A stretch of DNA of 37,349 nucleotides from Acidimicrobiia bacterium (GTDB lineage Bacteria > Actinomycetota > Acidimicrobiia > Acidimicrobiales > Bin134): NCBI GenBank assembly GCA_022821445.1, contig JAJEDQ010000056.1, forward strand, positions 1 through 37,349, read 5' to 3'. Made by a program: the position numbers and the translations under genes. Shown one piece after another: positions 31,357 to 33,406 of this stretch. The number at the start of each line of letters is the position of its first letter. The first letter of the stretch is position 1. Under the pieces are notes generated by a model. That model had not been told where the DNA came from, ran no database searches, and saw only the letters and a list, made by a program, of their open reading frames with translations.

Positions 31357-31742
31357 CTCGCTCCACCCTCGTCTGGTTCCAGCGGGGGCAGGTATGTCCG
31401 GCCATCGGGCTCCACCATCCCCAACCGGTACAGGGCCTCGGCCACGATGCGGTTGGGGGCTTCGGCCCTGGCCACGTTGAGCTGCAATCGGTCGTTGACG
31501 GCTCGAACGTCTTCAATCTGCTGATTGAGGTTGTCCAGAGTGGATTGCCGGTCCACGATCACGGCATGAAGGAAGGCGAGGGCGAACAGGGCGACAACCA
31601 CGGTAATGGCCGCAGCCCAGCCCAGCACGGGCATCAGCCTGCGTTTCGGCCGCGGCGCCGCCCGGAGGTGTTGGCGGGGCTGGTTGGTCCGGTGGGCCGG
31701 GTCGGCCGGCGACGGTTGAGGGCGGTGTTGCGGGGCGACCAT
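31353..31742 (-). CDS. ftsL: FtsL-like septum formation protein
   Basis: Pro-rich cytoplasmic segment, single TM (AAAITVVVALFALAFLHAVIV), coiled-coil; located between rsmH and ftsI. Confidence 0.78.
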   Translation of the reverse strand: MVAPQHRPQPSPADPAHRTNQPRQHLRAAPRPKRRLMPVLGWAAAITVVVALFALAFLHAVIVDRQSTLDNLNQQIEDVRAVNDRLQLNVARAEAPNRIVAEALYRLGMVEPDGRTYLPPLEPDEGGAR

Positions 31743-32722
31743 TACCCGGCCACCTCACCCTGATCGGCCCCCAGCTTGCAGAACGCCCGATAGCGGGCGC
31801 TTGAGGCTCGGGGATTGTCGGCCACCTCCGCAGGGCTGGGCTTGCGACTGCCCCGGGGAACCAACTCGATTGCGGGTGGGGCCTGGGTGTCAGAGCGGGG
31901 CAGTCCCAGATAGCGGGACTCATCGGAAAGTCCGGCCCGGCGGCGGAGAACCTGTTTGACGATGCGATCCTCCCCGCTGTGGTAGCTGAGCACCACCCCC
32001 CGGCCTTCGGGTGCCATCCGGTTTATGGATGTTTCCAGGGCAGGCTCGATCTGGTTCAGCTCATCGTTTACTGCAATGCGAATGGCCTGAAAGGTCCGCT
32101 TGGCCGGGTGGCCTCCCCGGCGGCGGGCGGGAGCGGGAATGGCATCGCGAACCACCTCGGCCAACTCGGTGGTAGACCCGATCGGCCGAGCCGAAGCGAT
32201 GGCGGCGGCGATGCGGTGGGCGTAGCGCTCATCGCCGTAAGAGCGCAGGATCGTGACCAGTTCGTCTGTTGACCAGGCGTTCACCACTTGGCCGGCCGAG
32301 AGTTGCTGGCCGCCGTCCATCCTCATGTCCAGCGGACCGTCGTGGCGATAGCTGAACCCGCGCTCGGGCTGGTCCAGTTGCGGAGAGCTCACCCCGAAGT
32401 CGAATAGCGATCCCACTATGCAGGCAACGCCCAGGGAATCCAGAACGTCGCCCAGCTGTCCGAAGCTGGCGTGGTGGATCGTGGCGCCGCGGCCGGCCAA
32501 GACGGTGGTGGCGGCCTCGACCGCGGAGGGGTCACGGTCGAGGCCTATTAGCGAGAGGTCAGGGCGGGCGTTCAAGAGCGCCCGAGCGTGACCTCCCCCG
32601 CCCACGGTGGCGTCGAGAAAGGCTCCCGACGGGACCGTAGACAGGTGCTCCACCACTTCTGTCACCATGACGGGGTGATGGACGAAACGACGTTCGATCG
32701 CTGTCGGTGTCCCCCCGTTCAT
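31742..32722 (-). CDS. rsmH: 16S rRNA (cytosine-1402-N4)-methyltransferase
   Basis: HHPVMVTEVVEHL, GAFLDATVGGGGHARALL, DFGVSSPQLDQPERGFSYRHDGPLDMRM, SYHSGEDRIVKQ. Confidence 0.96.
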   Translation of the reverse strand: MNGGTPTAIERRFVHHPVMVTEVVEHLSTVPSGAFLDATVGGGGHARALLNARPDLSLIGLDRDPSAVEAATTVLAGRGATIHHASFGQLGDVLDSLGVACIVGSLFDFGVSSPQLDQPERGFSYRHDGPLDMRMDGGQQLSAGQVVNAWSTDELVTILRSYGDERYAHRIAAAIASARPIGSTTELAEVVRDAIPAPARRRGGHPAKRTFQAIRIAVNDELNQIEPALETSINRMAPEGRGVVLSYHSGEDRIVKQVLRRRAGLSDESRYLGLPRSDTQAPPAIELVPRGSRKPSPAEVADNPRASSARYRAFCKLGADQGEVAG

Positions 32723-32986
32723 GATTTTTCACCTCCCTGGCGGCTCAGCAGACTGCTGCGAGAAGGGCCTGTTTTTTGCGCCCGATGGGATCGAACGGCA
32801 AGAATGTCGCCCATCGGCAGTCCTCCGCCCGGCGACCGCACTCCGGGATTTCTCCCCGGTTGTGTCAGATGGCAAGCGGGCGGAGTAGGGGCCTTCCATC
32901 TCGTCGGACGGAGGACTGCCCATGAGCGCACTCCTGGTCGGCCTACACGGAGGTCACCGACCTTGTTGTCTGTCTGCGAATCCACA
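32723..32986 (-). ncRNA. Candidate structured cis-regulatory leader between mraZ and rsmH
   Basis: Nested inverted repeats 32816-32827/32909-32920 (12 bp perfect), 32782-32789/32810-32817, 32843-32847/32855-32859, 32868-32873/32896-32901. Confidence 0.5.
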
Positions 32987-33406
32987 TCACAACCACCGGT
33001 CTACGTCTGCCTCGCCGAGTTCGGCTTGCAGCGACTGCCATTGCTCCGCGTCCCACACCTCGCCGCGGTTGAACACACCGACCAGCACCACGTTCTTGTC
33101 CAATCCCAGCACCTCACGCTTGGAGGATGGGAGGTTCAACCGACCTTGGGCATCCACGGTGGCCGGTTCGAGGCTGGAGGAGAATGCCCGCAGTTCGTCG
33201 CCCGTGGCCTCTCCGGCCCGAACCGCCGCCTCGAGCCGCTCCAGCGCGCTGCGGGCCTCATCCGCAGTCCAGATGCCGAGGCACTGCCTGTAGATGGCCA
33301 CGTAGGCCCCTTCAGCCAGCACCGAGCGGAAGACCGGCGGCAACGAGAGCCGGCCCTTGTCGTCCAGGGAACGCGTGTGCTCACCGGTGAGCACGATTCC
33401 CCCCAT
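32987..33406 (-). CDS. mraZ: Transcriptional regulator MraZ
   Basis: GEHTRSLDDKGRLSLPPVFR and VDAQGRLNLPSSKREVLGL (two DxxGR AbrB-like motifs). Confidence 0.95.
   Translation of the reverse strand: MGGIVLTGEHTRSLDDKGRLSLPPVFRSVLAEGAYVAIYRQCLGIWTADEARSALERLEAAVRAGEATGDELRAFSSSLEPATVDAQGRLNLPSSKREVLGLDKNVVLVGVFNRGEVWDAEQWQSLQAELGEADVDRWL

What the first reader, a model, noticed from the sequence alone, without database searches (positions are those of the whole stretch)
32723..32986. Nested inverted-repeat element fills the mraZ-rsmH gap: candidate regulatory RNA of the dcw operon
Seen on the minus-strand transcript: GGCAGTCCTCCG (32920-32909) pairs perfectly with CGGAGGACTGCC (32827-32816) and extends by ATG/CAT after one mismatch. 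The enclosed ~80 nt hold two more stems, AGATGG/CCATCT and CCGGG/CCCGG, giving a multibranch shape. The 3' arm runs straight into CCGATGGG, which pairs with CCCATCGG (32789-32782); these two pairings share two nt, so a switch-like alternative is possible. A short CAGCAGACTGCTG hairpin (32746-32758) sits before the rsmH Shine-Dalgarno GGGAGGTG. Established: an actinobacterial 'mraW' RNA motif has been described upstream of rsmH/mraW. I cannot tell whether this is that motif or a new one.
Basis: partly seen in the sequence, partly recalled or inferred. Interest (0 to 1): 0.75.

Follow-up and report, generated by a model that had tools for sequence, protein, structure and literature searches.

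The report
RNA switch-like leader before rsmH
In Acidimicrobiia, the messenger RNA for a ribosome-modifying enzyme (RsmH) carries a strongly conserved, apparently undescribed folded element whose main stem often hides a translation start signal for that enzyme, so it probably controls how much of the enzyme is made.

Summary
Every arm was found at the stated coordinates, and the region folds better than all 200 shuffles (z -3.7). It is one copy of a structured RNA family, about 100-140 nt long, lying between mraZ and rsmH across the class Acidimicrobiia. A covariance model finds it in 114 of 148 sampled class genomes and in none of the roughly 224 genomes from other classes of the phylum. All 27 pairs of the main helix (P1) have compensatory changes on a sequence-only alignment. 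It is not coding. In 84 of 164 loci the 3' arm of P1 contains a start codon in frame with rsmH, usually preceded by a Shine-Dalgarno; predicted unpaired probability of the SD is 0.02, against about 0.4 in controls. In the window the P1 start opens a 31-codon ORF overlapping rsmH at ATGA. The apical loop carries a near-invariant CUCCGCCCG, whose best match in the rRNA operon is the RsmH target around C1402 (CACCGCCCG). That suggests, but does not prove, RsmH feedback by substrate mimicry.

The parts
32802..32933 (-). conserved structured RNA element (full covariance-model match)
   Evidence: R1 match 146.7 bits, E 3e-33; single locus per genome
32902..32929 (-). P1 helix, 5' arm
   Evidence: RNAalifold and pair counts, covarying
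32807..32834 (-). P1 helix, 3' arm (contains a buried SD and AUG)
   Evidence: RNAalifold and pair counts
32868..32900 (-). P2 hairpin GAUGGAAG...CUUGCCAUC, present in long and short forms
32877..32885 (-). near-invariant apical loop CUCCGCCCG; CCGCCCG (32883-32877) equals the 16S heptamer centred on C1402
   Evidence: column counts over 83 distinct copies; CCGCCCG in 20 of 20 short forms; rRNA scan; predicted unpaired except at its 3' G
32843..32859 (-). P3 hairpin CCGGG-GAGAAAU-CCCGG (absent in short forms)
32822..32826 (-). Shine-Dalgarno GGAGG inside the P1 3' arm
   Evidence: predicted unpaired probability 0.0
32812..32814 (-). AUG inside the P1 3' arm
   Evidence: predicted unpaired probability 0.00-0.01
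32719..32814 (-). 31-codon leader ORF MGDILAVRSHRAQKTGPSRSSLLSRQGGEKS*, its stop overlapping the rsmH start as ATGA
   Evidence: coupling is inferred
32731..32738 (-). rsmH's own Shine-Dalgarno AGGGAGGU
31742..32722 (-). rsmH (mraW), 16S rRNA C1402 N4-methyltransferase
   Evidence: Pfam PF01795, E 1.9e-94
32987..33406 (-). mraZ
   Evidence: tblastn orthologues upstream of the element in 161 of 166 loci; named from gene order and my own knowledge of the dcw cluster, no family scan run

Best explanation
The element is a cis-acting RNA leader that controls translation of rsmH. SHOWN: it is a conserved RNA structure on the rsmH sense strand, one locus per genome, between mraZ and rsmH. In about half the loci the 3' arm of its long P1 helix contains a start codon in frame with rsmH, usually with a Shine-Dalgarno, and in the window the equivalent AUG opens a leader ORF ending on the rsmH start codon (ATGA). 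INFERRED: while P1 is closed, 30S subunits cannot load, so rsmH is made little or not at all. A trans factor that reads the P2 loop CUCCGCCCG shifts the balance between closed and open. MOST LIKELY SINGLE CANDIDATE FOR THAT FACTOR (about 1 in 4): RsmH itself. The loop copies the 16S strand that RsmH methylates (C1399-G1405, CCGCCCG, centred on C1402), so spare RsmH would bind its own message, hold P1 closed and stop its own synthesis.
For: P1 covariation on a sequence-only MAFFT alignment of 45 copies: 27 of 27 pairs change on both sides, 91.1% of cells paired against 32-46% when slid, 0 of 500 shuffles reach any measure. The short forms agree. RNA rather than DNA: G-U cells 110, A-C cells 41, p 2e-8; forward strand 146.7 bits, reverse 42.1. 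Context: rsmH downstream in 164 of 166 distinct loci, mraZ upstream in 161. RBS occlusion: P1 start codon in frame and open to rsmH in 84 of 164, that is 84 of the 123 with a start codon there (chance about 1/3, p 4e-15). An SD-like core lies upstream in 81 of those 84, mostly 6-8 nt away. Mean unpaired probability of the SD is 0.02 against 0.41 at mraZ starts and 0.37 at rsmH starts of other classes. Loop: CUCCGCCC is the most conserved unpaired run and CCGCCCG is identical in 20 of 20 short forms. Within about 5.2 kb of the rRNA operon the C1402 site is the unique best match to CUCCGCCCG, with one mismatch.
Against: No expression, probing or binding data. In 80 of 164 loci, the window included, the P1 start is not the rsmH start; the window's rsmH has its own SD, so control there would need coupling. 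The ATGA-type overlap is only moderately enriched (19 of 39 against 6 of 40 in control frames, p 0.002, with related sequences counted, and 24 of 82 in loci lacking a P1 start). For the RsmH step: E. coli RsmH needs assembled 30S, not protein-free 16S rRNA (PMC5053481), and its human orthologue METTL15 contacts the RNA backbone without base specificity (PMC10828496). The loop's conserved U at -1 differs from A1398. Deep branches keep only CUCCGC. Given its composition, CCGCCCG would be hit by chance in about 1 of 21 permutations.
Confidence: 0.6

Rival explanations
1. Ribosome-state sensor: the buried start makes rsmH translation depend on whether 30S subunits already carry m4C1402, with no protein binding the loop.
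For: A 2026 preprint on B. [quoted passage not shown] The P1 geometry here is of that sort, in the gene for the enzyme itself.
Against: It gives no reason for the near-invariant unpaired CUCCGCCCG loop. P1 is far longer and more GC-rich than those stems, and the preprint found that a strengthened stem drastically reduced expression with or without MraW. The circuit would be positive feedback.
Confidence: 0.15
2. Another trans factor (ribosomal protein, RNA-binding protein or small RNA) reads the loop and controls rsmH or the downstream dcw genes.
For: The loop is conserved as single-stranded sequence and has no cis pairing partner above chance, so a trans partner is expected.
Against: No candidate is identified, and the one-gene association points to RsmH.
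Confidence: 0.3
3. Small-molecule riboswitch, for example for S-adenosylmethionine or its product.
For: RsmH uses S-adenosylmethionine (established knowledge); the long form has a P2/P3 junction with conserved letters.
Against: The short form drops P3 and the junction while keeping position and loop. No Rfam riboswitch matches even weakly. One gene only.
Confidence: 0.1
4. RNase III processing or stability hairpin separating mraZ from the rsmH message.
For: P1 gives more than 20 bp of near-perfect duplex.
Against: It does not explain the conserved loop or the enrichment of in-frame start codons in P1.
Confidence: 0.08
5. Member of Rfam mraW (RF01746).
For: Same gene, same place, similar length; both have an apical pyrimidine-rich hairpin loop.
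Against: No match at E up to 10 in the window; no genome over the cut-off among 59 of the order; R1 does not find true mraW copies (E 0.06 or worse); loop ACUUCCCC against ACUCCGCCC.
Confidence: 0.03
6. A translated 88-aa or 64-aa protein.
For: Open frames exist in the window.
Against: Element lengths fall evenly over the three frames (54, 51, 61) and about a third of copies have stops in those frames; the changes follow base pairing.
Confidence: 0.01

Closest known systems
mraW RNA motif (Rfam RF01746; Weinberg et al. 2010, PMC2864571)
   Same: Structured RNA between mraZ and rsmH/mraW in Actinomycetota; apical C-rich hairpin loop; function unknown.
   Different: Different taxa (Actinomycetales), no covariance-model cross-match in either direction, loop ACUUCCCC rather than CUCCGCCCG. 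In the loci seen here the rsmH start lies downstream of the motif rather than inside its main stem.
Autogenous ribosomal-protein leaders (general kind; e.g. the review PMC10931766 and the leader survey PMC7247131, seen as abstracts)
   Same: Would work alike if RsmH binds: an mRNA leader imitating an rRNA site and closing the RBS.
   Different: The gene is an rRNA methyltransferase, not a ribosomal protein; no binding shown.
MraW-dependent stem-loop mRNAs of B. subtilis (cmpA, isp; PMC13317604)
   Same: Start region inside a stem; link to C1402 methylation.
   Different: Those are individual short stems in other genes, not one RNA family in front of the rsmH gene itself, and no conserved loop is described.

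Membership tests
Rfam mraW RF01746 | covariance-model score at or above the gathering cut-off (50 bits) | tested here: not met
   none in the window, none at E<=10, 0 of 59 genomes of the order over the cut-off
Rfam mraW RF01746 | position upstream of rsmH/mraW | tested here: met
   164 of 166 loci
Rfam mraW RF01746 | apical ACUUCCCC-type loop seen in true copies | tested here: not met
   true copies L046-L053 against CUCCGCCCG
Rfam mraW RF01746 | found in Actinomycetales | tested here: not met
   R1 hits only in the window's class; named records mostly Acidimicrobiia
Conserved structured cis-regulatory RNA (general kind) | covariation beyond shuffle and slide controls | tested here: met
Conserved structured cis-regulatory RNA (general kind) | fixed linkage to one downstream gene on the same strand | tested here: met
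Conserved structured cis-regulatory RNA (general kind) | changes expression of that gene | not testable with these tools
   needs reporters
Autogenous leader by rRNA mimicry | leader resembles the encoded protein's rRNA site | tested here: inconclusive
   best match in the rRNA operon is the C1402 site, one mismatch; about 1 in 21 by composition alone; not kept in deep branches
Autogenous leader by rRNA mimicry | encoded protein binds the leader and represses | not testable with these tools
   needs binding and reporter assays
Known riboswitch classes | match to an Rfam riboswitch family | tested here: not met

The most novel reading that the evidence does not exclude
RsmH, a 16S rRNA methyltransferase, represses its own synthesis across a bacterial class by binding (and perhaps methylating) a decoding-centre mimic, CCGCCCG, displayed on an mRNA hairpin whose stem closes the translation start.
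Probability: 0.22. Interest if true: 0.85.

Novelty: new member of a known kind. Interest (0 to 1): 0.66.

Why it matters
It adds a class-wide RNA family, apparently undescribed, to the leader of one of the most conserved rRNA-modifying enzymes, at the head of the cell-division gene cluster. How RsmH levels are set, and why rsmH sits in the division cluster, are open questions. This element offers a direct test: a compact leader with a buried start and a loop resembling the enzyme's own target. The mraW motif has no known function, so a mechanism here might also bear on that.

Tried and rejected
For long-range cis pairing of the loop, runs of complementarity downstream, upstream and in the P1 3' arm do not exceed shuffles. 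The loop's nine-base complementarity to the window's own P1 3' arm (CGGGCGGAG) is not kept even within the genus, where P1 changes by compensation. Protein coding was rejected, as was a repeat or mobile element, since there is one locus per genome. A DNA inverted repeat was rejected on the G-U excess over A-C and the strand asymmetry of scores. A search for CCGCCC in rsmH leaders of other classes gave sporadic hits only, no pattern. Structure prediction and protein-fold tools were not used, as the question concerns RNA.

Full report
What was checked. The window's minus strand carries mraZ (33406-32987), a 264-nt gap, and rsmH (32722-31742). The gap folds at -120.5 kcal/mol, z -3.67 against 200 dinucleotide shuffles. 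The element occurs once in its own genome; the other matches are short chance hits.

It is a conserved RNA family. A nucleotide search found the element in species of the genus (84-98% identity) and its central 120 nt, at about 72-81%, in other families of the order. The loci from that search in which both genes could be placed all have it between mraZ and rsmH. From 16 diverse copies RNAalifold gave P1, P2 and P3 with 24 of 43 pairs showing changes on both sides. A covariance model (R1) then found the element in 106 of 148 genomes of the order, 114 of 148 of the class, and 12 of 246 of the phylum. All 12 phylum hits belong to the same class. From the order of the listing about 22 of those 246 genomes are of the class, so about 224 genomes of other classes gave nothing. 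Named records that hold the core pattern are mostly Acidimicrobiia, including Microthrixaceae.

Covariation. On a MAFFT alignment made from sequence alone (45 copies, A4), all 27 P1 pairs have changes on both sides. 91.1% of cells pair, against 70.4% in column shuffles and 32-46% when the arms are slid, and the covariation score is 0.631 against 0.247 +/- 0.012; 0 of 500 shuffles reach any measure. The short forms, which lack P3, give the same result with 21 of 32 pairs. G-U cells outnumber A-C cells 110 to 41, and the model scores the rsmH sense strand far above the antisense (146.7 against 42.1 bits). The structure is therefore selected as RNA on the rsmH transcript. It is not coding: element lengths are spread over all three frames and about a third of copies have stops in the 88-aa or 64-aa frame.

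It is not the mraW motif. Rfam gives nothing in the window at gathering scores and only two chance microRNA matches at E<=10. RF01746 is over its cut-off in none of 59 genomes of the order, while it does find C. glutamicum and 7 of 149 genomes of the phylum. True mraW copies carry an ACUUCCCC loop, and R1 does not find them (best E 0.06). Eight diverse copies of the new element also match no mraW model. Literature searches found no description of this element; the library holds open-licence papers only.

Anatomy and mechanism. In 166 distinct copies rsmH follows in 164 and mraZ precedes in 161. Of 164 copies, 123 have an AUG or GUG at the 3' end of P1, and in 84 it is in frame with rsmH with no stop between (chance about one third, p 4e-15). 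In 72 of these the conserved start of RsmH follows at once. An SD-like core precedes 81 of the 84, mostly at 6-8 nt. Both lie within P1: predicted mean unpaired probability is 0.02 for the SD and 0.07 for the start codon, against 0.41 and 0.34 at mraZ starts and 0.37 and 0.30 at rsmH starts of other classes. In the window the P1 SD (32826-32822) and AUG (32814-32812) are fully paired. The AUG opens a 31-codon ORF whose stop overlaps the rsmH start as ATGA. Such overlaps are enriched in the reading frame used (19 of 39 against 6 of 40 in control frames, p 0.002), but the loci are related and the loci without a P1 start show 24 of 82, so coupling is plausible, not shown. In 41 copies there is no start codon at that place; there the element must act otherwise or has drifted.

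The loop. Over 83 distinct copies the most conserved unpaired letters are CUCCGCCC followed by G, and in the short forms CCGCCCG is identical in 20 of 20. It has no cis partner above chance. The E. coli 16S heptamer C1399-G1405 is CCGCCCG, with C1402, the base RsmH methylates, at its centre (numbering from my own knowledge; the enzyme's target from PMC5053481). Scanning the 16S-23S region of a genus member, the C1402 site is the unique best match to CUCCGCCCG (one mismatch; next best two). This would be expected by chance in roughly 1 of 21 orders of the same letters. The conserved U differs from A1398, deep branches keep only CUCCGC, and RsmH is reported to need whole 30S subunits. I therefore hold RsmH feedback by mimicry as the leading single candidate at about one in four, and RBS occlusion as the main claim.

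A second reading. A 2026 preprint reports that B. subtilis mRNAs with stems over the start region depend on MraW-modified ribosomes (PMC13317604). A buried rsmH start could therefore sense the methylation state of ribosomes directly. This explains P1 but not the loop.

Gain and loss. Of 25 order genomes without a hit in the large scans, 22 gave an rsmH. Five of those carry a diverged copy that scores E<1e-4 when searched on its own locus (L369, L373, L374, L378, L380), and one is cut by a contig end (L368). Many of the rest have mraZ and rsmH separated by fewer than 100 nt, with no room for the element.

Limits. Everything on function is inference from sequence. The E-values of R1 are rough. 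Relatedness inflates counts over copies, though the slide control and the strand asymmetry do not depend on it in the same way.

Noticed in passing
window 33466-33422 (minus strand): Five GGG-containing repeats upstream of mraZ, TGGGG-N5-AGGGA-N5-TGGGA-N5-TGGGA-N5-GGGGA, with an exact 10-nt period: looks like an MraZ operator array (MraZ-box knowledge is my own).
   Followed up: no
L231, L258 (titled Bifidobacterium breve) and L217, L235, L248 (titled Acidobacteria): MAG records with these titles carry the Acidimicrobiia element; the record names are probably wrong.
   Followed up: no
window 32795-32781 (minus strand): A small local hairpin (CGAUCCCAUCG; UCCGAUCACAUCGGA or CCGACCCGGUCGG in sister species) is conserved inside the leader ORF of the window's genus, followed by GCGCAAAA-type sequence in many of them.
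   Followed up: partly
L210 2320-2400: Weak second match to the model upstream of mraZ is a low-complexity palindrome, not a second element.
   Followed up: yes
L130-L157 (short-form loci): The short forms (about 97-114 nt) lost P3 and most have a conserved CCAGCG strand between P2 and P1; its role is unknown.
   Followed up: no
L157 loop: One copy has CUACCGCCCGG, losing the U and matching 16S ACCGCCCG over eight letters.
   Followed up: no
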